From contig CAIIXF020000003.1 in assembly GCA_903813345.2 (NCBI GenBank), forward strand, positions 34,211,000-34,274,999: 64,000 nucleotides of DNA. The letters run 5' to 3'. Made by a program: the position numbers and the translations under genes. Below are positions 17,881 to 64,000 of the stretch, piece after piece. The DNA is from Owenia fusiformis. Lineage: Eukaryota > Annelida > Polychaeta > Sabellida > Oweniidae. The notes beneath the pieces were generated by a model. That model did no database searches, had not been told where the DNA came from, and saw only the letters and a list, made by a program, of their open reading frames with translations. Position 1 is the first letter of the stretch; every line of letters begins with the position of its first letter.

Positions 17881-20257
17881 TCAGAAAATTCCAATCGCCA
17901 CCTATATTTACTTAAAATGACCTTATAAGGAAGGTCTAAATCAGGATTTTCTCCATTTTCTTAATTGTGTTGGCTTGAATTCACCTCTATATAAACATAG
18001 GTTTGACATAAGGTTGCTAAATGGCATAATTATGGAGTGAACTGATGTAAGATGATGGGTCTGATGATGGAGTGAACTTCCATATAGGGGCTCATATATT
18101 TATAAGCCTCCAGCCTCAATCAATTTGATCATTGTTTAGAACAATAGACAATACACATAATTATATTATTCTGTATTGAAACAAACACATTTCAACATGC
18201 AGTCATACAGATGAGAATTTGATGAACTTTCTTAAGATTTTATTGAAATATACTATTTTACTTACCCAAATGAGTTCAATAAATCCATAATCTATATTTA
18301 TTTATCATTTATCATAATTGCTAATCAATAAAAGGACCCAATGACCTTAACACAAAAAGGTCATGTCATTGTATTCAATGTAAACCACATTCTATCAATT
18401 TCCAGTAAATTTTATGAGTTTTACCTGTTGTTGTGTTTCTACGTATGGTTGCTATGGTTAGATTGCATCAGCGATATAAAAACGCTATTTTGTGGATGAT
18501 TTTTTTATTACGAATTAACTTCTGGACCAGTTGACATTTTTACCATAAACTATAATAAAAAGTTCCAATCTGAGTAAGATATATTCATTAGATTTCTGAT
18601 GTAGCTCATGACATTGCATCAACTTTATGCTTCAATTGCAATAAAATTGATTTTAAATTTCTGATTTTTTCATCAACGTGTTTTTATGATATTTACGACG
18701 TGTCAATGATGCATTGATAATTGGTCACTGCACCTATGCGTGGCTACTATTATAAATGCCCAGTGGCGTTATCAGCTGAATTATTCATAACGTCGAATAT
18801 TTTATGAAATTAACTTTAAATAAATTGCAAAAAAGGTTTCCAAGCTTAAGAGTAGCTCGGAGCAAAATATTCTACCGTTTGAATCTAATAGTATTGTCTT
18901 AAAATGCATTAATTTTGTTTTTTTTGTCATTCATAACGGCTTTTGTTAAATTGGTCAGTCAATGAAAAATATGTCATGTGCAAGAGAAGGTAATAAAACG
19001 TATAGAATATGTAGATCTGTTAGTCTGATACAGGTAGTTTTCTATCAAAGTGAAAAGCTTTTTTAGATTAACGTATCTTTTCTATACTATAAGCAAAGGT
19101 AACTGTTAATACAAGTATATTGTAATTAGAGAGTAAATCCCCTCAGATCAAAAGATCAAAGGAAAATACTTATTAGCCAAGTGTTTTTATGATCGATGCA
19201 TTAGCAGTTATATAGGATTTTACAATGAACATTAATAATGTAAAAGTGCACAATCAAATTGTTGCGCTGGTGAAATGTGTTCCAGCACAATCAGTTATTG
19301 TTTCATGAACAATGAGCCTGTTGAATATCAGGTTCAAAACATTGAACCTTTCTTGAACCTTTATAACATAACTCATCACACAATTTTATAGTATAACAGA
19401 AAGTTCAGATACAGAGTCAATCAATGTAAATGATATCTCCTCCAACACCAAAAAAGATCTCACTTCATGCACTCACTGCACTCACTACTGCATTTTACTC
19501 AAGTTTTCTCCCAAAAACATCAACAGAGGAATGTTCTGGTATACCCTGTATTAAGATTAGATTAAACCTGTTTACTTTATGCCTTGCTAATTTAACCCTA
19601 AATACTGTATTTAGAATTCTTAATTTTGCATACAATGATCATTTTATGCCAGGGAAATTGTGATTGCGTTTTGTTGAGAGATTCATTCAAGTGAAACTTA
19701 AACCTGTGTTTAATTTCGATCATTGGGTCGTTCAGGAAATGCCAATTTGTAACTTGTTTTTATCTGTGTCATTTCGTTCACCTTGAGCACGAGCAAATGA
19801 TTATAGTTGTAGTTATTTCTGTACCCTTTATTACAATTAGCCTGTCTGGCCTCTGACTTTTACTTGAACAATAGTTCCTATTATGCAAATGAGATCTTAA
19901 CAGACTCAAATGTTGCTTTGATTGCCTTATATGGAAGTTTGCATGTAAAATGAGTATTAGTTTCTTATAGGCCAATCATTGCCGTGCAGTGTTTTCCTTC
20001 AATAATTCCAAATTGATTGGTTATAAGCAAAATCAAATTAATTCCATTTTCAGAGGGCGGAAAGAGTACACTAAAGGGTATTTCTCATTGAAACAAACTG
20101 TGTCCATTTTCTGTTAAAGGCCCCATTCAAAGTTAAAGAAATTATTTAATAATCCAAAATTCAATTTTTAAATAAAAAAGTTGTTTATGACTCCCTATGT
20201 CAGAAAAAATTAGCAAACAATGAAAATATGTATGGAATCAACAAATAAATGAACTAA
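17881..20257. other. Gene-free AT-rich stretch
   Basis: No recognisable coding or RNA feature on either strand. Confidence 0.5.
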
Positions 20258-21372
20258 TAGCAAGGGTAAACAATGATATGCATGTAGATTATCAAACACA
20301 CAATGATATGCATGTAGATTATCAAACACACAATGATATGCATGTAGATTATCAAACACACAATGATATGAATGTAGATTATCAAACACACAATGATATG
20401 CATGTAGATTATCAAACACACAATGATATGCATGTAGAATATCAAACAAACAATGATATGCATGTAGATTATCAAACACACAATGAAATGCATGTAGATT
20501 ATCAAACAAACAATGATATGCATGTAGATTATCAAACACATAATGATATGCAAGTATATTATCAAACACACAATGATATGTATGTAGAATATCAAACGCA
20601 CAATGATATGCATGTAGATTATCAAAAACATAATGATATGCAAGTATATTATCAAACGCACAATGATATGCAAGTAGATTATCAAACACACAATGATAAG
20701 CATGTAGATTATCAAAGACACAATGATATGAATGTAGATTATCAAACGCACAATGATATGCATGTAGATTATCAAAAACATAATGATATGCAAGTATATT
20801 ATCAAACGCACAATGATATGCAAGTAGATTATCAAACACACAATGATAAGCATGTAGATTATCAAAGACACAATGATATGCAAGTAGATTATCAAACACA
20901 CAATGATATGCATGTAGATTATCAAACACACAATGATATGCAAGTAGATTATCAAACATACAATGATATGCAAGTAGATTATCAAACACACAATGATATA
21001 CAAGTAGATTATCAAACACACAATGATATACATGTAGATTATCAAACACACAATGATATACATGTAGATTATCAAACACACAATGATATGCATGTAGATT
21101 ATCAAACGCACAATGATATGCATGTAGATTATCAAACACACAATGATATGCATGTAGATTATCAAACACACAATGATATGCAAGTAGATTATCAAACACA
21201 CAATGATATGCATGTAGATTATCAAACACACAATGATATGCATGTAGATTATCAAACACACAATGATAAAAATGTAGATTATCAAACACACAATGATAAG
21301 CATGTAGATTATCAAACACACAATGATATGCAAGTAGATTATCAAACACACAATGATATGCAAGTAGATAAT
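20258..21372. repeat. 30-bp minisatellite (AATGATATGCATGTAGATTATCAAACACAC type)
   Basis: About 37 nearly identical head-to-tail copies of a 30-bp unit. Frequent variants are ATGCATGT to ATGCAAGT, CACA to CGCA, and ATGATATG to ATGATAAG. Because 30 is a multiple of three and the unit lacks stops in several frames, both strands stay open for 370-400 codons (plus-strand decapeptide NDMHVDYQTH; minus-strand HCVFDNLHAY-like). I see no promoter, splice or terminal-domain evidence and treat these as incidental. Higher-order structure: the block at 20597-20730 recurs 150 bp later at 20747-20880 with the same variants, showing recent amplification in steps of five units. Confidence 0.95.
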
Positions 21373-24300
21373 CAAACAACAACTAAACTAAACAATGTAA
21401 AATCATCGATTTTCTATATTGCTTTTAATTCAATTACTGAGTTTAACAAGCTGATGATGAATGTTGGGAAATTGATTGTCTGAATTGATCCAACGCTTCG
21501 GTTTTTCTCTGAAATTTTTCTTTATTAAATTTTTTCTATAATCAATTTACAAAATTATTTGAATTAGTAGTAGATAGGCAAGTGGGATAAACAATGCAAA
21601 CCAAAATGAAGTGAATTAATCTTACAGAGACAGATCAGCAGATTATCTCTACTCCAAAGAGAGTACATGAAGCTCTCTTTTAATAGCATGATATCGTGAA
21701 ATACAACAATTAAAATGGTACATTTTAGCAAGGCAAGTGTGCCAGTCACCATAGCATAACACAGTTCACCTGTTGCAACGTTCTAAAAGAGGTGAATGCA
21801 ATGAAATGTGGCATGAATACCTACTTTTAGAGATAACCTTGGCCTATTTTACTTAATCAGAGCACACATTAATAAAAGTACCTTTAAATGAATCAAAGCT
21901 TGAGTAAAAGCTTCAATGGCACTTGATGTTTCATCAATTTTTTTAATCTCAATATTGTTAATGTATTTAACGTGTCACCAAAGCATAGAGTGTGAAATTT
22001 TAGGACTATTGTTATCTATTCAATTAAGATGTCAAAGTGTCCCTTATTAGTCTAGAATCCTACATCTGAAAGGATCTGAGATATCTGATAAAATATGTAA
22101 CTAATTAGAGCTTAGTGAGATGGAGAAATGCACCTGAAATGCACCCATACTCAGTTGAGTATTGAGTATTCAGTTGAGTATGGGTGAGTAGAGTATGGGT
22201 GCTCAGTTTTGCAAATAACCTAAAATCAAAGAATTCTATGATTTATTAATTTTTAGAACATTGTTATAACTTGAATTTTCTTTCTTTTTCTAAATAACAA
22301 TATAATAGGTTGGAGAATGACTTTCATGTATTTTAAAATCCCCTTCAATCAGACTTAAAATGCGATCAAATATATGAGTTTGTGTTGCCAAAGTTTTGGG
22401 GGTGAGTGTACTTCATGCATGTTTCTCGATTCCACTAACATAGTCTTATTTAAAATATTATCATTATGGGATTTTAATAACACGTTTTCAGATCCTTCTT
22501 TTGAAAGCTACTTCCCAATAATTGTATTACACAGAGTTTGTAAAATGAATGCAGTGACATGTATGAGTTTATGATGATTTGTCCCACGCAATTTAGTCAT
22601 CATTCAAAATGAACGCTATCTCACAAATTGCAGTTTCTCCATTATCCGAGTACAATAGAGATTTCAACACTTTCCACATTGACTTTATGTTGATATGTGA
22701 ATAATTATCTGAAAAACATAATTCATACCTCTACCTGAGAGTCAGAGATAAACATTTAGAATTACTTAGTTTTACAGTTAAAATGTTTCTCCGAAAGCAA
22801 ATGGGCCAAAATTAATGTTTTTATTCTTCTTGGTTTGTTTCGATGAACACTTGACAGATATGGCGGCATTAACCTTTATGTCCAATAGTACAAAAAAACG
22901 GAGATTAAAGTTAAACACATATTTATTTAGCAGTGTTTTTGCATTTTTTCAAAATTTGTAAAAAGTGTTCAAATGAAGAAAATATATCGAAATTATTCAA
23001 GATGTATATAAACGATTTGATGTCAAATTTGAGCAGAAACCCACTTATGTCATGACTTAAGTATGAACACAAAATTGTGATTTAAGAGCAATTAGTGCTA
23101 AATCCACGGTTAACACCGATAATTGATCCTGAATCGGCGCAAGTTGTGCACTCATTCAAGCGTTGAAGAGTTATCCAGATTAACTTTTTATAAAGGTATA
23201 TTTTTCAAAATTGACATTCAGTAAAACCAGATTGAAGATTAATAACCAAGCATAGTGTTTTTTATGTCTCTAATTCTGTTAAAAAACTTGTTTAATTACA
23301 AGAGTGACCATGTGGCGTCAATGTTATTCACACTTAAAATTTCACAATAATCCCCTCTATTGTAATTCTATTTCTCCAAGAACTTCTTTATTTCCTCTCA
23401 TTTCTACACAATTTAGAGTGCTTAATACAAACATATATAGATTCCATGGCAATTCCATTGTTTTTTGCTCAAATTTGCATCCTAAAACATTCACAATTTA
23501 TATTCCATCCACGGGAAATCTATGTATGGGATATTTATCACCGTGGGGACAATAGGTCATGACATGTGTATGATCACATAAACAAAATCACACAGTTATC
23601 ACATTTCAAAACGTAAAATAGAGTAAAAGAGAGAGTTATTAACAAGAAATAAAGTAATCAAGCATAAGGGGCATACCTTAAATAATATCAAAACCCCATA
23701 TAAAATGTACTCTAATCCCATGTATAAAGAAACATAACTAAATTAAATGGAAAGAAGCATTGCACAGTGAACTTTTATGCAAGGGCTTGAACAATAGGTA
23801 GCCTAGGTTTTAATAGATTCTATGATAGATGCTCTCATTAAATAAAATGAAAATATTTTTTTTGCAAAAAATTGTCAAAGTGTGTGTTTAGTTAATCTTT
23901 TTATAAAAATAATCAAATATGTTTTTTGTAAGATGTGTTGTTTTAATCACTTGTATTTTGCGAAACCAGGAATCTTCATTTGATCTTTTTTACCTTAATG
24001 AACAAATAAGAAGTGAATTGTTATATTTTGCATGGGATGGAACATTAGAGAGAGAGGGGGGGGGGGTATCATTGGAGATGCACTAAGCAGTCAATACTGA
24101 TGACCAATAAACTAAATATTTTTGATTTAACTGGTAATACAAAATTCTCAGATTCAAACCTTAAGAATAACCTTTACTATAACAACTGATTGATATATAA
24201 TATTTTTATAACTAAAATCCAAAATACTTTTCCAACTTTCTAAGCATATGCACTGCTATAAAAGTGCTACCAAATAAATAAAGAAATTAATTACTAAATG

Positions 24301-54800: not shown

Positions 54801-55452
54801 TTGTCTAATTTTCTTGTTTTCGCCACCATTAAGTCATATATCGTTATAGTCTCTACTTTTTATGACTGGCGTTCTGTGTTGGCATTTGCATTTAGCTTAG
54901 CACTATCCAAATTACACTTTTTGTGGTGGTTAGTTAGTCATTAAATTCCTTGTTTTCTTTATACAGCATGCAACTTAAATTTATTTTTCAATTTCAGAGA
55001 AAGATTTTTTGGAATTCTTCTTCAAAAGAGTGAAAACAAATGAAAGTGGGCGCTACGAAGACTTCCCTTATATATCCTTATGTGGACGTGAACGTAATTT
55101 CATTCGCTGTGATGATCAACCAATCGTATACACACATCTAATCCAAACAGAATCTGGACATATGCTGACTTATGGGTATGCTGGTGATAGACTTAAGGTT
55201 GAATTCGAACCATCAGAACTCTGCATGTTACCTTGGACAGGACGTGTGTACCACCCTGCGTCAGATCGCACAGGGGGTGTTGGCTTGATTAAATCTAGTC
55301 TAGCAATTGAACTGAGTCAATATTTTGAATATGGACATGGGGACGAGAGTCAGCCCCCAACACATTTCAACTGGCAAAATCACAATTATACACTTACAAA
55401 CAATTTAGTGAAATTGGTAGAAGAAAAATCACATGTGGAAAATGAGACATAA
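51811..55452 (+). CDS. C8orf82: UPF0598 family protein (C8orf82 homologue), complete, 3 exons
   Basis: Exons 51811-51951, 54506-54554 and 54998-55452 join in frame (645 bp, 214 codons plus stop; human protein about 216). Conserved family blocks are visible: YFYYIDHQGQLFLDD spanning exons 1-2, KNFTSCFK, ESGRYEDFPYISLCGRERNF in exon 3, GRVYHPASDRTGGVGLIKS, and ELSQYFEYG near the C-terminus. Function is unknown. The first 25 or so residues (MLQKCSFLISRRIISSPLLS) are Arg-containing with no acidic residue, like a mitochondrial targeting peptide, which would fit a mitochondrial location (inference). The start is the first ATG after the TATA-like and ETS-like sites, and exon 1 has a consensus donor. 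Intron 1 (2.55 kb) holds several inverted-repeat elements and a SINE-like sequence. The gene is divergent from KATNB1 and convergent with PEPD. Confidence 0.95.
52007..52091. repeat. Near-perfect 85-bp hairpin in C8orf82 intron 1
   Basis: Arms of about 33 bp beginning CATAGGCCAAGGGAAAAGCA, with two mismatches and a loop of about 19 bp. Part of one arm (GAGGCCAAGGGAAAAGTAAA) recurs near 52826, so it is probably a mini-MITE. The size also fits a microRNA-like precursor. Confidence 0.75.
52492..52586. repeat. Inverted repeat with CCGGACTCTTGT arms, C8orf82 intron 1
   Basis: CCGGACTCTTGTGTGTCCAA faces TTGGACAGACAAGAGTCCGG across about 55 bp. The loop contains TGATGACGTCAC, a CRE-like palindrome. 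Probably a small non-autonomous DNA element. Confidence 0.7.
53154..53425. mobile_element. 272-bp MITE with 25-bp TIRs, C8orf82 intron 1
   Basis: Terminal inverted repeats start TAATGGAGTGTTTCGG at the left and end CCGAAACACTCCATTA at the right, extending to 25 bp with two mismatches. The terminal TA is consistent with a TA target duplication. There is no coding capacity. A Tc1/mariner-type MITE is the most likely class. Confidence 0.8.
54085..54330 (+). mobile_element. tRNA-derived SINE-like sequence, C8orf82 intron 1
   Basis: A tRNA-like head includes TATAGAGATTGGTAGAGAAT (A-box-like), an anticodon-stem-like pair CTGACTT...AAGTCAG and GAATTCGATTCCC (B-box-like, GGTTCGANTCC), in the order and spacing of a tRNA. 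About 170 bp of non-tRNA body follows. The 3' limit is uncertain. The head is too diverged to be a functional tRNA gene. Confidence 0.55.
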
Positions 55453-55508
55453 CCACTTGATGAATCATAAGCTCAATCACACAAAGTTGTTTTGTTGTAT
55501 CATTCTTG

Positions 55509-55514
55509 AATAAA
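55509..55514 (+). terminator. Polyadenylation signal (AATAAA) of the C8orf82 homologue
   Basis: AATAAA 57 bp beyond the stop codon at 55452, in a position typical of a short animal 3' UTR. Confidence 0.65.
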
Positions 55515-56721
55515 AAGCTTTGTTAAAGTGGCAATATGATATTGATTTATATAGGCTAGCAAGCTAACATTTGAGTGGAAAATCCTATATTACCACTTTA
55601 AAGATATAATATGTCAATCATCATTTAATTTGGAAATGACATTATACAAAATAAAACAAACTTACATATTTTTGAAATCAAAGCATTTTTTATTATAAAA
55701 TTATTTCTTATTCATGCTGTCCTTTAGTACAGAGAACAGTGACCTCCTCAGGTTTTATATTTTTCTCAAACAGGTACTAAATTCTAGTTTTACTTGTTTT
55801 GTTCAACATATCATCGTTCTGAGGGGTGCAGATTTTCAACAGGTTGACATGTATTTTGATATGAATTTCCAACACCTGGTTGTTATTTTAATGCTGGGAG
55901 ATCACTGGATGAGAAGTGAATAGAAGGAACATTTTGAAGTGAACACCTCTCAAGTGAACATTTCTCTGAATACATATTATTCTAAACTTTAATTTGCAAA
56001 TCGCTCCATATGGCATTTGATTGAAGATCATGAGCAAATATTCTATCAGAGTATTATATTGCACAAAGTATATGTTGAAATAAAACTAAAACAGATCTCG
56101 ATAAAAGACCCTGTGAAACAAAATACCGGATTTTCTTATAAAGAGGCCCGGAAAATAAGGCTTGAAGTTTTGCTAAACATTGCCATACTTGCCTTTTTAA
56201 CATTTTATTTTGCTCTCTCATTTCACAATTTCAATTCACTGATATTTAAGTCTATGTCACATTTATAGTCCGATTGGGTTAATGTATACTACTGTTACAA
56301 ACTCCTTATATGGTGCTATTGTTACTAACTCCTTATATGGTGCTACTGGTTTGGCTACTCTGAATCATCCTCAACACCTGGGAATAATTATAGTTATTTT
56401 ATGTACCTTATATTAATGAAAATGGCCGCCTCATGAATTTTGATCTCTAATGTCAAATAAGATGAATTCAGCTTAAAATCTCATGAAAATTTAATCGAGC
56501 TACATTTCTTATTTGTCCAGTTATGTAGTTGATAATTCCACCATTTTGCATTCCAAAACAAAATCAGCATCAGGATACAAGGCACCTTTGGGACAATAAG
56601 TATATATCGATTAGCTGATTATGTCAACATTGAAATGTACATGACATGCATAGTTCATAAAACTAGTAGCATTCAAAAATGCTTATGGCACACCCTGCTC
56701 AGCATGGTATTCGTGGTTTAT
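55515..56721. other. Intergenic region between convergent genes
   Basis: About 1.2 kb between the C8orf82 poly(A) signal and the PEPD stop. It contains a short duplicated TCCTTATATGGTGCTA word near 56305-56345 and AACACCTCTCAAGTGAACAT near 55940, reminiscent of the GTGTTC repeat family. No gene is seen. It presumably includes the PEPD 3' UTR. Confidence 0.55.
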
Positions 56722-59700
56722 TTATTGTTCCTTTGTTTCATTTCTTCTTCCTTCTGCCATGCAGGCTTCAATCTCCTCGACAGTGCGGGGGACACATGTC
56801 AGTAGTTCCATACCATCTTCTGTTGTTACAATGTCATCTTCAATACGCACCTACAATTATAAAAAATGTGTTCTTAGATGAAGAGTATAGTAGCTTAAGT
56901 TGTAATCAAGTTAAACAACTTTTCAAAATGTTTGTTAAATTGTAGTACTAAACTGAATGTTTAATAAAATACTGCACTTATTAAGTTGTGTGGCTGACAC
57001 CAAAATAAGTGATAATAAATAATAAAACAGTGAATAAAATAATTAACAAGTTATTATGTTATCTTGAGTGTGCAGTAGCCTATATTTCTAAAACAATTGA
57101 TGTGTTATGAGAAATAGTGATCTGCAATAATGATGACCCCAGTGTGATTTAAAAAGACAATTGCAATATCTACTCACCCCACCAAACCCTCGGAATGTGT
57201 CGATAACTTCTCTCACCATGAAGCAGTTCTGCTCTGGATTCTCCAAGGCAGCATCAAGAAGCTGAAATTTAAATGAAGCGTCAGGTCAATATTTGCATGT
57301 TCTAAATTGTGTCAATCAGTTTTTGACACTGTCAGCTTAATCTGTTAATTTGATAAGAACCTGACCATCAAAGAAAATCTAGTGGCGACAAATGTAAACT
57401 TAAATTAGTTGTTATTATCCATTGACTCATCTACCCTCATCTGTCATTGGCCCTACCACTAAGATGTCAAAAAGAAAATATTTTCCCAAACATTTCTCCA
57501 ATATGCCATTGATGAATGTATTGTCTTAGTTTTTCTTGGGAATTTTTGCCATGGCCCTGCCAGGCCAGTTGTACACTTATAACTAATTTTATTTATGAAG
57601 AAATCAGAAAAAATGAAAATAAAAAATTTAGCAAAAATGTGTTTATTATCTCCCAGGTTTTGTTATCTCTAGTCCCCATTGTTGAGATAGAACTTACGCA
57701 GTCTATGAAATATATTCCTGGTTCTATTGTCAAACACATATTTGACTCAATGTCTCTTGCAGTCCTTAAGCTCCTCAATCCAGGCTCCTCTATTCTCTCA
57801 ACTCCCTGCAACATTACAAATCATACTTTAAAATGTAAAATAAATAAAATACACATCGTGTAAGTAGTTGAAGTAATCCTAGGGGCAAACTTAAGACCAA
57901 CAAGAGTTGTGTTATGTAAACAGGGCAGCATCGCTGACCTTTTTAAGTACCCTCAATATACTGGCCCACGAGCCATATGACTACTCTTTCAAAATAATGC
58001 TACTTGACTCTTATACCATGTACTTCTTGTTCCTATTTTTGCTTTAGTGGAATAATTTTGTTGCTAATACAAAGAAAATGAACAAAGATCCTTGCACCAA
58101 CAATGAAAACAAATTGAATTCATATGTTAGTCAATTTTCTAACAAACACCAAATGGGCCTCTTACTGGAAGTACTTATAAAATTAGCCACAAGGCCTTTT
58201 TACATTGGTAAACAAGGAAAGGGCTCATTTCGAGGAAATCTGGTACAAATGTTTAAATCATTTTGACAGTCAGCACCAAGTTTAGAGTGGTATAATCATG
58301 AATTAATTTCAAACTCACCTCAGGGTAACCCCCTACATCATGTGTATCACATCCCATAAAGTGGCCCAAGCCATGAGGCATGAACACAGCACCAAGTTTA
58401 GCTTTCACCATGTCATCTATATCTCCTTTCAACAATCCATGACACTTCAGCTCTTCTAAGTGAACCCTGTCAGCCAGTCGGTGCATGTCTGTCCAATTGA
58501 CACCTACAAAATACAATTGACATCTACAATTAAATTTACCTCTTCAATTTACAACTGACATCTTTAAATTGCAATTGACACCTACAATTGACATCTACAA
58601 TTTACAATTGACATCTATAAAATACAAGTGACACCTTCAATGTACAACTGACATCTACAATTTACAATTGGCACCTAAAATTTACAATTGACATCTACAA
58701 TTTACAATTGACACCTACACTTTACAACTGACATCTACAACAAACAATTGACACCTACAATATATAATTGACACCTACACTATACAGCTGACATCTTCAA
58801 TTTCATCAGATGTCGCAAAATTAAACTCAATCATGGCAAATAAAATAAAATTTAAGGTAGCCTAGGTTATGAATATGCAAAACTTGAGAGCTTGGTCTAA
58901 ACATATAGTTTTACAAGGCATTAACATGCAAGATGTTACCACTTGCCATTTGTTACAGTTGCTGACAACACCATTCCCAGAAATCGGGAGACTATAACAA
59001 TATGTCACCACTAGCGCTACACTGATATAACAAACATGATAAAATAACATACCTAGCATCTAAAATGAAATAATTTTTAGTCAATTTGGAACAAACCTAC
59101 TTAAAATGAACTGAAACTTTTGTACTCCAAATAGATAAGTGAAACAAACCTGGTTTCAAAGCTTTCATGACAGCTCGGCTTGACTTGTATACTGAATTAT
59201 AGATGTCCTTCTGTTTTTCTGTGAACTTGCCATTTGCAGGGAAAGAGCATGTGATATCAGATGTGTAGCAATAGTATTCACCACCCATGTCAAAAAGACT
59301 GAAATAAAACAACAAAATAAACAAATAAGATTGGGATAAAATAAGTAATTATGCAATTTATAATGCAAACTTTAGGATCTTTAGATATATCAATAAGAGA
59401 AAACATTATTAAGTCAAGCTCTGAGAAAATGTGGAGTCCACCTACCACATATCTCCATCGTTGATTTTCTTATCATTTGGAGCCCCTGCGTGCCCATAAT
59501 GTAGGGTGGCCCCATTGTTTCCACTATAAAACAATAAACAAATCTTTAAATACATATGTCTTATTTTTTATATTTTTTTGAGCTAGAAATAAATCCACTT
59601 TGAAGCAGATGGTTCTATTTCTTCTTTATTGTTCATACTGTTTTTCCTCTCATGTCATCATGAAATCTTTGATATGATAGATTACCTCATAATAATATAT

Positions 59701-62700
59701 GAATAGCTTTAAACATTCAAAACTGATCTTTTTATCAAATTATGAGGTATGGTAGTATTTAAAGGCTCACTATGCATATTTTCAAAATTTTTGGGCAAAA
59801 TAAAGACTTACTTTTGAACTTCATAGTATTTCAAATGGATTGATAAGTTTCATTAGACCCAAAAAATGTCAATGAAAGATGGCGAAGTTGTTTGTATCAC
59901 ATGATTCATTCATTTTTATAGAAGTGTCGCCATCTTTTAAATCAAGAGTTATTTAAAAACATGCACTTTTGCGCTTTGTCAAAAATGGGCATGCACTACA
60001 AAGGATCTCTGAACTTCAAATGCTGTTTTTTCGTTTCAATATTAATGCAAATCAAAATTTGTATCATATTTGATTGAGTGTGTAAATAATATGTTTCAAT
60101 GATTATTAACTTTTTTTCTTCTAAAGTAAGCATAGTGGACCTTTAATTTATTTTTTGTGCTATTTACACCTTTAATATTATGAAATATAACATCAAACTT
60201 CAACTGATCCAAATACAATCTCATGTTGTTCTCTACTGTATCCAGTTTAACACTGTTATACCTTCCACATATGCAGGTATATGAGCAATGTCTCATACCG
60301 CCAATCTTGTAGCAATAGTGAGAAAATACTGATTCCATTTGGTACTCCATCAATCCAGGACGAACAGACCTCATTACCTGCAGAAAATATAGATAATAGA
60401 TGAAGGAGTGATTATCATTTAAACATTATACCTTCCACATACGCAGGCCCATGAGCAGTGTCTCATTCCACCAATCTTATAGCAATAGTGAGAAAACAGA
60501 GATTCCATTTGGTATTCCATCAATCCAGGGCGAACAGATCTCATTACCTGCAGAAAATTCAGCACTCTATTTAAAGAAGTAGAACAGATAGAGAGTGTAA
60601 AATATTGGATGCAATCTTTTCAAAAACCACATTACTCAGAAAAAGTAAAAAAGTGACCTTTTTAGCTCTCCCATTTGTGTGTCCCCTCCCGTACAACTAA
60701 AATGATTTCATAAAAAAGGACACAATGCTAATTAAGCTGACTCCTGACTTTTTAGACATAACTCACCTCTTTGTGAGCCTCGCTGCTGATTTTGTTTGTG
60801 TAGCGTAAAATCTCTATTTCTTGTGGACTTTTGAAGACGCGGCTGAAATATTTGAATTGTGTTTATTGAATAATAACATATAGAGCTGATTTTAATATTC
60901 AGTACTATAGAGTGATCTGGTTCTTAGTCTTACATATTTCTCTGTGTTTCTCTCATGTTACATGTACCTCATGTATTGTTCCAACTTTCGTATAATAACT
61001 ATCAAGATGTAGTCAAGCAAAGTTATATAAAGCGGGAATGTATACATATTGTTTTGGATCAATACAATGGTACTGTCATCGCGTTATGAAAGTGAAATAT
61101 GAAAAGTTAAAGTTCTCATAAGATGAACAATTTATTATAGAAATGGACTGATAAAAACAGTTTTATATAATTGACGGTGCATTTCTTTGAATCTACCAAT
61201 AGTTAAATCTAAAAGAAATTTTTTTCTCATTTGATACTCACCATTCCATGATCTGTGGATGAAGAAACTTGTTATCTACTGTGAACCTAAACATAAAAAA
61301 TAAGTTAAAGTCTGATTTGTGAAAAACTACAATACAGTAAAAATATTTCAAGTGGAATACATCTGTAAGTGCCACATCTTACATGTGGAATAGTTTTCAA
61401 AGTTCTTTGTCCGATTGACTACATGTTAGTGAATCTAACAGTTTCTAGTAAATTGACAATAAGATTTTTCACATATTTTATGGAAGGGAAGAAACAGACC
61501 TGGGGTGAAAGGTTTGTTCCTTTTATTCAATGGGAAATATGTCTTGCCAACCCAGGGCCAGTACATATTTTGCCGAACTAGAAATAAATTCTGACTTACT
61601 CACTGATTCCATCAAATGCTGCTTCTCTACAAAAATTTCCACTGTCTGTGTTGAGGCCATGCTAAAATATAAAAGATCATATAATATTTGATGTGTTTAT
61701 ATAATGATCTTTTAATAGTATTGCTTTTCTCTGACTGATTTTTGCCCATGCTTACTGTGAGATCAAACAAAGTAAAAATATATGATTTAAATTAAAACAG
61801 CTTTGGAACATTAGAAAGAGGTATCAAACTGAGACCTTTTACACTTCTACTCTAAGAATCCATCTTGGTAGTGACATGAAAATGTTGATTTACAAGTGGG
61901 AGTCAACAATCATCCCTTAAGAGGGAGTAGTCCAAACTCAACTTACCAATGTCAGCAGTACACTTGGTTTCAGCTCTTTTAGAACATTGGCAAGCTGGAA
62001 TATATTAAAAGTACAGTAAAATGTTGGTAGGAAGACCCTTGAGTGTTTCAATTGGGAGGTGTTCCACTTATAAAGATTCATTAACAAGAAGTCAATGGGT
62101 CATGATACTCTTAAACTACTTCACATAAGTCATTGCTCTTGTGAGATGTTCATTTGTGAGTTGTCTCACATGCAAGGTGTTCCATTGCACAGGTTTTACG
62201 CTGTAAACACAATAAGAGCACTAACACACCTGGAAATATCTCAGAAAAAAAGTTGAGCTTTCTAATATATTTTTTTGCTGAATTGGGAAAATGTGCATTG
62301 GCCTGTATTGAGAAAATAACTCCATATCTTATGTTAAAATTATGTATAGATTTGTATAGATTTTCAAACTGACATGTTGAATCAATAACTCAAGTTACTG
62401 ACAGACAATGTCCCCAGTTCTGCTTATATCAATAACTGCAGTTACCATTATTTTAGCTTACCTCAGGCACCCAATGGACTTCATCTGTGTGGTATTTCTT
62501 CTGGAAGTCTCCTTGGGTAAACAACCTGAAATAAGTGAACCCATAAAGTATAATATATCTCCCATATTACTGTTATTCACTAAATATTTATATTTTTTAG
62601 AAAATATTTATAAATCATATAATGGTTCATCTTGTGCTTGGGACCACAAACTTGTTTAAATGTTATATTCCTTTCAACAAAAATAAAATGCTTAAAAAGT

Positions 62701-63615
62701 CACTCTGAGGTTTACTTTTCACACAATTTAAACTACATGTCATTACAAAATGCAGAAAGTTAACTTTTGTTTTCTTACTTTCCCATCCAAACAGCATATG
62801 AATCTGGCAATTTTGGCATGAATATAATTGACTTTCCCGAATCTACATCTATGGCTCCATATGCATCAGGCTCCAGCACCCCAAATGTCCAGTGGAAATA
62901 TGATTCCTAAATTGACAAATGCATAAAATCATTTAAATACATATAAAACTATCGTGATTCATATTTTATGTAATAGATATATGGGGTAGGTTGGATCTGG
63001 AAACTGAGAAAGATTAGGGCCTAGAATTGATTTTTGTGTGAGAAGAAACATCAAGGCCAAGGTCAGAAATGAGACTTTTTCTTGAAAATGAGGTTCAAAA
63101 GGCCTAGCTATTATCAGTCCTGAAATGAAAAATTTGAGGCCTAAAATCTGGCTGTGTAGGAGGTGGTGTTCACTTGTATATCTGCTTCTTTGATTTCTAT
63201 TTAAGATTCTATTAATGAGGCAAAGAGTGATAAGCAAAACTTACAAGCTGAATGTAACACTTCTGGAACAGTCTTCAAAAATATCAGTATTTAACGATGG
63301 CTGTTTTGTAGGTTTTATAATGGCTCTCACAATGCAAATCTCCAGTAATGCTAATTATACTTTTTTACTCCATTTTGCAACAACCAAGATATTTTACTGC
63401 CATACAAAACTTGAATTCATAAAAGACATACCTGTCTGAACACTGGTTCATGGTCACTGCAGTAGCGAAGTTTAGACTCGCCTCCTTGTAGCAGCACTAG
63501 TGACCCCTTTTGGTAACCAGGAGCATTACGAAGTCTTTCACACAGTCGTTGGCGGTTTTCCTTGTGGAGACTCATGGGAATCTCCAGGGTGGTTGAACCC
63601 TGACAGAATGCTGGC
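56722..63615 (-). CDS. PEPD: Xaa-Pro dipeptidase (prolidase), partial: N-terminal few residues lie beyond the right edge
   Basis: Cytosolic Mn-dependent metallopeptidase of the M24 (pita-bread) family that hydrolyses X-Pro dipeptides, as from collagen turnover. Exons in gene order: 63432-63615, 62779-62906, 62462-62525, 61947-61994, 61600-61661, 61242-61286, 60767-60842, then one of 60432-60547 or 60262-60377, then 59446-59523, 59150-59298, 58319-58503, 57698-57805, 57178-57261, 56722-56850. Phases agree throughout; about 485 codons are present (human protein 493). Motifs include NRQRLCERL near the N-terminus, [36 protein letters not shown] and [11 protein letters not shown]. The metal ligands are all present: Asp in LFDMGGEYY, Asp in TSDITCSFP, His in PHGLGHFMG, Glu in [10 protein letters not shown] and Glu in VRIEDD. 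The stop at 56722-56724 overlaps an AATAAA. The first exon in the window begins in phase 2 of a codon, so the start methionine is to the right. Confidence 0.97.
58503..58805. repeat. 20-bp minisatellite adjoining a PEPD splice acceptor
   Basis: About 15 copies of GACATCTACAATTTACAATT and its GACACCTAC... variant. The array begins right at the acceptor of the 58319-58503 exon; the exon start itself (complement of CAATTGACACCTACAAAATA) fits the repeat word, so the array may have grown from the exon-intron boundary. Confidence 0.88.
58915..59040. repeat. Interspersed repeat copy in a PEPD intron
   Basis: Partner of the copy at 35070-35170 (shared AAGGCATTAACA, GCAA, TGCCATTTG order). Class unknown. 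Confidence 0.6.
60262..60377 (-). CDS. PEPD: PEPD duplicated exon, copy A (downstream)
   Basis: A 116-bp exon beginning GTAATGAGA after CTGCAG and ending GGAAG before GTATAAC. It encodes [17 protein letters not shown], then [20 protein letters not shown], then G and a split codon completed to Ser by the next exon. It matches the canonical animal sequence (MRHSSYTCICGSG in human) best. It lies 54 bp downstream of copy B with the same phases and length. Confidence 0.93.
60432..60547 (-). CDS. PEPD: PEPD duplicated exon, copy B (upstream), alternative
   Basis: Tandem copy of the preceding exon, offset by 170 bp, also 116 bp with CTGCAG acceptor and GTATAAT donor. The protein differs from copy A at four places: ESL for ESV, and SWACVCG for SYTCICG. 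The frame is intact, with no stop. Because both copies keep reading frame and splice sites, it is likely an alternative exon rather than a relic. Confidence 0.88.
62008..62205. repeat. MITE-like GTGTTCC repeat with TACAGTAAAA ends, PEPD intron
   Basis: It begins GTACAGTAAAATGTTGG and ends CAGGTTTTACGCTGTAA, giving short imperfect terminal inverted repeats. It contains GGGAGGTGTTCCACTTAT, GTCAATGGGTCATGATAC and AAGGTGTTCCATTG. It shares modules with 42000-42175 and 40735-40925. Confidence 0.65.
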
Positions 63616-63639
63616 CTAGATAACAAAGTACATTTTGGC

Positions 63640-63860
63640 CTGTCAACTTGGGAACACCTAACATGAGTGACTTAAAAATGTTGAACACCTTTCCTCAAAT
63701 TTTGGACACCCTCGCCCAAATCTGAACACCCTGGCCCACATTTTGAGCACCTTGGTTCAAATTTTATTGCATATAACAAACTTTTGGACACATGTCGAGG
63801 TAACATTCAAAGGTCAAGGTAACACTCAAAAGTCAAGGTAATCAGAAAGGGTCAAGATGT
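63640..63860. repeat. Degenerate tandem repeats at the right edge, PEPD intron 1
   Basis: A unit of about 21 bp (GAACACCCTGGCCCACATTT type) occurs about five times at 63645-63765. A shorter AAAGGTCAAGGTAACACTC unit follows to about 63860. No exon is recognised from here to 64000. Confidence 0.75.
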
Positions 63861-64000
63861 TGACATCTAAAGAGGTCATGCTTAAAAGGTTACTGAAAGT
63901 TGAAATACTCAGAGGAGAATCCTTTATCAAGTTTATTAGAAATTTAAAAGCATGAGTGCATGACATGTGCAAACATTGCACAAGGGTAAAACCAGAGTAT

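What the first reader, a model, noticed from the sequence alone, without database searches (positions are those of the whole stretch)
60262..60547. Tandem exon duplication in prolidase that looks like a mutually exclusive exon pair
Two adjacent 116-bp exons share phase, acceptor (CTGCAG) and donor (GGAAG|GTATAA). Joining B to A reads GGA AGG TAA, an immediate stop. Skipping both shifts the next exon and stops after about 16 codons. The gap between the copies is only 54 bp, possibly too short to be spliced as an intron, which would enforce exclusivity. The copies differ at four residues, three of them just after the conserved MRH motif (SYTCICG versus SWACVCG), close to the active site. Tyr-Thr to Trp-Ala there could alter substrate choice. 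I know of no described case of a prolidase with alternative active-site exons.
Basis: partly seen in the sequence, partly recalled or inferred. Interest (0 to 1): 0.88.

Follow-up and report, generated by a model that had tools for sequence, protein, structure and literature searches.

The report
Swappable active-site exon in prolidase
An animal gene for prolidase, an enzyme that recycles proline from peptides, carries two interchangeable versions of one exon that would give the enzyme two different active-site pockets; both look preserved by selection, but no transcript data were available to show that both are used.

Summary
In a prolidase gene on the minus strand, a 116-bp exon occurs twice (B 60547-60432, A 60377-60262), 54 bp apart. 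Length, phase and splice sites are the same; 14 nt and 4 residues differ. Using both copies, retaining the 54-bp intron, or skipping both gives an early stop. The 54-bp intron is the shortest seen: 13 others in this gene are 147-738 bp, and 60 estimated in other genes are at least 126 bp.

Copy B is not a relic that was neutral throughout. With 9 synonymous differences, a neutral B gives a median of 17-18 replacements in simulation; 4 were seen (P 0.002-0.004). Its derived changes fall only at human Y241, T242 and I244 (to W, A, V). Y241 and I244 align with OPAA Tyr212 and Ile215; Tyr212 is a small-pocket residue described as hydrogen-bonding two Asp that align with human metal ligands. Both positions are unchanged in 80 of 80 bacterial relatives counted.

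Best reading: a mutually exclusive exon pair, enforced by a too-short intron plus frame, giving a second prolidase with an altered pocket. Splicing and activity are inferred; no RNA, related species or assays were available. A new member of a known kind at an unusually functional site.

The parts
56722..63610 (-). Prolidase (Xaa-Pro dipeptidase, peptidase M24B) gene: 15 coding exons seen, stop codon at the low end; the short first coding exon lies beyond 63610 and was not located
   Evidence: Exon structure and frame; match to human prolidase 6.6e-231; Pfam PF00557 and PF05195
60767..60842 (-). Upstream constitutive exon (seventh of those seen)
60432..60547 (-). Exon copy B (5' copy): 116 bp, pocket motif SWACVCG; keeps the human-like Leu at exon position 17
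60378..60431 (-). 54-bp intron between the copies; TnAy branch-point candidates at +6 to +38 from its 5' splice site; reading into it from B meets TAA
60262..60377 (-). Exon copy A (3' copy): 116 bp, human-like pocket motif SYTCICG
60440..60451 (-). Copy B codons 33-36 for Trp, Ala, Cys, Val (human positions 241-244)
60270..60281 (-). Copy A codons 33-36 for Tyr, Thr, Cys, Ile (human positions 241-244)
59446..59523 (-). Downstream constitutive exon, carries the His255 equivalent; read in frame from either copy

Best explanation
The gene makes two prolidases by mutually exclusive splicing. Exon 7 is joined either to B or to A, and either is joined to the next exon at 59523. B cannot be joined to A in a useful transcript: the intron between them is 54 bp, so a branch point in it would lie closer to the 5' splice site of B than the roughly 50 nt that spliceosome assembly is thought to need, and a B-A product has a stop at the junction. 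Form A is the ordinary enzyme. Form B has Trp, Ala and Val where human prolidase has Tyr241, Thr242 and Ile244: one larger side chain and two smaller ones in or next to the small substrate pocket beside the metal site. I think form B is a folded enzyme with a changed pocket and so a changed substrate or metal preference. Shown: the anatomy, the stops, selection on B since duplication, and the identity and constancy of the changed positions. Inferred: that both forms are spliced, the steric block, and the change in catalysis.
For: Same length, phase, splice sites and homology, the criteria of PMC3228551 (passages). Stops after the three other outcomes tested. Intron of 54 bp against 13 others in the gene of 147-738 bp and 60 estimated introns of myosin and chaperonin genes of at least 126 bp; among all 152 matches behind that estimate, none has an inserted length near 54 bp that would betray a swallowed short intron. 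dN/dS 0.11-0.15; a B neutral since duplication gives 4 or fewer replacements in 0.0017-0.0037 of runs. B differs from human where A does not only at exon positions 33, 34 and 36; 3 changes within 4 of 38 codons by chance 0.013. Of the exon's 38 positions only E11, Y33 and I36 are unchanged in 80 of 80 bacterial relatives, and B changes two of them. They align with OPAA Tyr212 and Ile215; PMC7916636 (passages) puts Tyr212 in the small pocket, hydrogen-bonded to Asp244 and Asp255.
Against: No RNA read was seen. Trp occurs at this position in 0 of 80 relatives and Val at the other in 0 of 80, and of two distant M24 stretches fetched from the same genome the one that covers the site has Phe and Ile, so form B might be inactive. 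Weaker constraint on B (dN/dS 0.3) fits the data too (4 or fewer replacements in 0.20-0.21 of runs). Without polarity, the clustering of the four differences is only P 0.047. No RNA pairing that would direct the choice was found. One species only. The simulation assumes equal mutation on both copies and no gene conversion.
Confidence: 0.62

Rival explanations
1. Mutually exclusive splicing is real, but form B is a catalytically dead or weak prolidase, kept as a partner in the homodimer or for a non-enzymatic role.
For: B changes two positions unchanged in 80 of 80 relatives, and the Tyr is described as hydrogen-bonding two catalytic Asp in OPAA. Such constancy suggests that most changes there are harmful.
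Against: In OPAA, Tyr212Phe raises efficiency on one organophosphorus substrate (PMC7916636), and PDB entries 4zwo and 4zwu differ from 3l24 at 212, the latter also at 215, so the positions tolerate change. The B changes partly balance in volume (+34, -27, -27 cubic angstroms; volumes recalled, sum). The metal ligands and His255 lie outside the swapped exon.
Confidence: 0.2
2. B is used as a switch-off exon: its inclusion with A makes a stop and lowers prolidase output by nonsense-mediated decay, and the protein made from B alone does not matter.
For: B plus A, and intron retention, both give early stops.
Against: A poison exon needs no conserved amino acids, yet a B without protein constraint is rejected; a 54-bp intron would hinder the B-A joining that this needs.
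Confidence: 0.07
3. B is a recently dead or unused duplicate that was functional for most of its history, or was kept similar to A by gene conversion.
For: Selection was measured over the whole time since duplication, so recent loss would not show; no transcript was seen.
Against: B is still open, with intact splice sites; differences are spread from codon 3 to codon 36, so no recent conversion tract is evident; B's own derived replacements are confined to the pocket rather than spread.
Confidence: 0.1
4. Assembly artefact: two alleles laid end to end.
For: Read depth could not be checked.
Against: A misjoined allele pair should share introns, but flanks are not detectably alike beyond the splice sites, synonymous divergence is about 0.4-0.5 per site, and no second copy was found in the held genome.
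Confidence: 0.01

Closest known systems
OGDH exons 4a/4b (2-oxoglutarate dehydrogenase E1)
   Different: There the swap sets calcium sensitivity; here it replaces residues of the substrate pocket. Branch points were mapped there, not here.
Animal mutually exclusive exon clusters, such as muscle myosin heavy chain
   Same: Tandem homologous exons; this genome has 12 tandem matches to the myosin exon before the P-loop
   Different: Myosin clusters are well described (PMC3912159, passages). For prolidase, one search gave 0 papers, and the 11 listed show no such case in their titles or abstract starts.
Human PEPD transcript variants 2 and 3
   Same: Alternative splicing in the same gene (PMC8438212, passages)
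   Different: Those lack in-frame exons and so lose protein; here one exon replaces another
OPAA entries 4zwo and 4zwu, probably engineered
   Same: Changes at Tyr212, and in 4zwu also at Ile215, the same two positions; PMC9231299 (passages) tells of engineering of this small pocket
   Different: Phe and Tyr in a bacterial enzyme; here natural Trp and Val offered by an alternative exon in an animal
CYP4F3, PKM and KHK alternative exons (recalled, from no call)
   Same: Mutually exclusive exons that change enzyme kinetics or substrate use
   Different: Other enzyme families

Membership tests
Prolidase (PEPD, peptidase M24B) | Full-length similarity to human prolidase | tested here: met
   Residues 2-472 of 482, E 6.6e-231; PF00557 and PF05195
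Prolidase (PEPD, peptidase M24B) | Metal ligands Asp276, Asp287, His370, Glu412, Glu452 | tested here: met
   Present at spliced-protein residue + 8 in an ungapped alignment, and among the invariant columns; ligand list from PMC8438212 (passages)
Prolidase (PEPD, peptidase M24B) | Tyr241 and Ile244 in the pocket, form A | tested here: met
Prolidase (PEPD, peptidase M24B) | Tyr241 and Ile244 in the pocket, form B | tested here: not met
   Trp and Val instead. That these two residues define the family is my choice, from their constancy in 80 of 80 relatives
Mutually exclusive exon pair | Equal or similar length | tested here: met
   116 and 116 bp
Mutually exclusive exon pair | Compatible splice sites and same reading frame, no in-frame stop | tested here: met
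   criteria in PMC3228551 (passages)
Mutually exclusive exon pair | Sequence homology | tested here: met
   102 of 116 nt, 34 of 38 residues
Mutually exclusive exon pair | Exactly one copy in each mature transcript | not testable with these tools
   No RNA data at hand
Steric-hindrance class of mutually exclusive exons | 5' splice site to branch point below about 50 nt | tested here: inconclusive
   Intron of 54 nt; TnAy matches at +6 to +38, one yTnAy at +31; the branch point is not mapped and this species' limit is unknown
RNA-structure (docker/selector) class of mutually exclusive exons | Strong pairing between introns around the copies | tested here: not met
   Fold z-score 0.38, 62 of 100 shuffles as good; duplexes between the three introns matched or beaten by 70, 92 and 46 of 100 shuffles

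The most novel reading that the evidence does not exclude
A prolidase that changes its catalytic pocket by splicing: form B replaces two residues that did not vary in any of the 80 relatives counted, giving one gene two substrate or metal preferences (for example bulkier or hydroxyproline-containing dipeptides, or non-peptide esters) chosen by tissue or life stage.
Probability: 0.42. Interest if true: 0.75.

Novelty: new member of a known kind. Interest (0 to 1): 0.58.

Why it matters
If true, evolution has changed, by exon swap, two active-site positions that did not vary in 80 of 80 relatives of a widespread housekeeping enzyme, while 34 of the exon's 38 residues are the same in both copies. 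It is a ready-made two-variant experiment on how this pocket sets specificity, at positions that also differ in the OPAA entries 4zwo and 4zwu. It also offers a compact case for testing whether a 54-nt intron alone can enforce exclusive splicing.

Tried and rejected
Chance similarity: rejected. Duplicate neutral since it arose: rejected by simulation; weaker constraint, or recent loss, is not excluded. Gene conversion: no tract seen. Other genomic copies: none found. RNA pairing as the selector: no support. Rfam families near the gene: none at gathering threshold in 55000-64000. Close prokaryotic relatives by single-sequence scan: 0 of 7 candidates confirmed. I did not classify them as prolidases or aminopeptidases P. 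Mitochondrial COX1, wanted to place the organism: no match. Naming the species by assembly size in papers: nothing useful (listing only); a passage on Owenia in PMC11371463 did not help. The first coding exon: sought in 5 kb beyond the window, no convincing candidate. Human Tyr241 in papers: no paper held the terms, and the passages of PMC3596340 and PMC4213023 did not name it.

Intron sizes are estimates from the tables. Of the 92 myosin rows I left out the 12 repeated matches in the C9 array; of the 60 chaperonin rows I left out 5 (long open frames, one row that seems to span an intron, one isolated row). 60 neighbouring pairs passed my filters. In one search, with all 152 rows, 4 rows have 10 or more extra codons (12, 12, 57 and 95) and none lies near the 18 that a swallowed 54-bp intron would give.

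Full report
What is there. The finding lies in a prolidase gene on the minus strand. Fifteen coding exons from 63610 to 56722, with GT-AG introns, give one open frame of 482 residues when either copy of the exon is left out. The protein matches human prolidase over residues 2-472 (E 6.6e-231) and Pfam M24 and AMP_N. The short first coding exon was not found. The eighth and ninth exons are two versions of one exon: B, 60547-60432, and A, 60377-60262. Each is 116 bp, with the same 10 bases before its start, the same donor GGAAG|GTATAA, and a 54-bp gap between them. They differ at 14 nucleotides, 9 synonymous and 5 not, and at 4 residues of 38. A DNA search of the held 498-Mb genome returned only this place; other M24 matches there are distant.

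Only one copy at a time makes a full protein. With A alone or B alone the frame runs on; with both it stops at the junction; with the 54-bp intron retained it stops at the fifth codon after CVCG; with neither it stops after 16 codons. The published criteria for predicting mutually exclusive exons, similar length, compatible splice sites, same frame and homology, are met (PMC3228551, passages). That paper reports that 90 of 16,180 exons not annotated as exclusive, on the fly X chromosome, share them.

The intron. The other 13 introns of the gene are 147-738 bp. From exon-by-exon matches of myosin and chaperonin genes I estimated 60 introns; the shortest is 126 bp. A very short intron whose length is a multiple of three could be swallowed in one match; checking all 152 matches for extra length found none near 54 bp. 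In human genes a donor to branch point distance under 50 nt was counted as potential steric interference, in 57 (9%) of 629 clusters (PMC5740500, passages), and it enforces the OGDH 4a/4b pair (PMC7969005, abstract and passages). TnAy matches in the 54-nt intron lie at +6 to +38. The branch point is not mapped. I found no RNA pairing that would choose between copies.

Copy B has been constrained. dS is 0.41-0.52 and dN/dS 0.11-0.15. In simulations conditioned on about 9 synonymous differences, with B neutral since duplication, the median number of replacements was 17-18, and 4 or fewer arose in 0.0017-0.0037 of 3000 accepted runs per setting; 27-31% of runs kept an open frame. With both copies at 0.1, 4 or fewer arose in 0.54 of runs; at 0.2, in 0.13-0.14; with A at 0.05 and B at 0.3, in 0.20-0.21. 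So strict neutrality is rejected, moderate relaxation is not, and recent loss cannot be excluded.

Where B changed. With the human protein as outgroup, B's derived changes are Y33W, T34A and I36V of the exon; the fourth difference is A's own change, Leu17 to Val. Three changes within four codons of 38 have a chance of 0.013; counting all four differences without polarity it is 0.047. Spliced-protein residue + 8 is the human number, since Asp268, Asp279 and His247 fall on Asp276, Asp287 and His255, so these are Y241, T242 and I244. Through a PepQ sequence (L013) the first and third align with OPAA Tyr212 and Ile215. PMC7916636 (passages) places Tyr212 in the small pocket, bonded to Asp244 and Asp255, which align with human Asp276 and Asp287, and reports that Tyr212Phe raises efficiency on one organophosphorus substrate. 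Entries 4zwo and 4zwu differ from 3l24 at 212, and 4zwu also at 215. Of two distant M24 stretches fetched from the same genome, one covers the site and has Phe and Ile. I did not sort the 80 by enzyme type; since E. coli-type aminopeptidase P was among the seeds, many may be of that kind (inference), which would make this a family-wide rule rather than one for prolidases alone.

How it probably works. Exon 7 is spliced to B or A, the short intron and the frame prevent both, and the two enzymes differ in one wall of the small pocket. A larger Trp with smaller Ala and Val nearly balances in volume (+34, -27, -27 cubic angstroms; volumes recalled, sum), which suggests a packed and working site. 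I put altered preference ahead of a dead enzyme, but only an assay can decide. Use of B in RNA is not shown.

Novelty. A search for prolidase with mutually exclusive exon gave 0 papers; one for at least three of prolidase, PEPD, alternative splicing and duplicated exon found 12 papers and listed 11, none about such a case by title or abstract start. Only open-licence papers are held, and I did not read those 11. The main text of PMC5740500 names neither PEPD nor prolidase. The mechanism class is well known, so I file it as a new member of a known kind, at an unusual site.

Noticed in passing
L097 (G000:C9:37985600-37994800, minus strand): Twelve tandem matches to the myosin-head exon before the P-loop (profile positions about 18-84) in about 8.3 kb; 10 of 12 have no stop inside the match. 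Looks like a very large mutually exclusive exon array in muscle myosin heavy chain.
   Followed up: partly
window 55009-55449 (+): Open frame matching PF14956 (DUF4505), E 5.1e-56, convergent with the prolidase gene.
   Followed up: no
window 58494-58803: AT-rich tandem array, period about 20, 15.9 copies, in the intron before the exon that starts at 58503 and running over that exon's first 10 bases.
   Followed up: no
window 20210-21483: Minisatellite of about 30 bp whose repeats stay open in long frames on both strands (401 aa on +, 390 and 373 aa on -); the + frame has no Pfam match; probably not a gene.
   Followed up: partly
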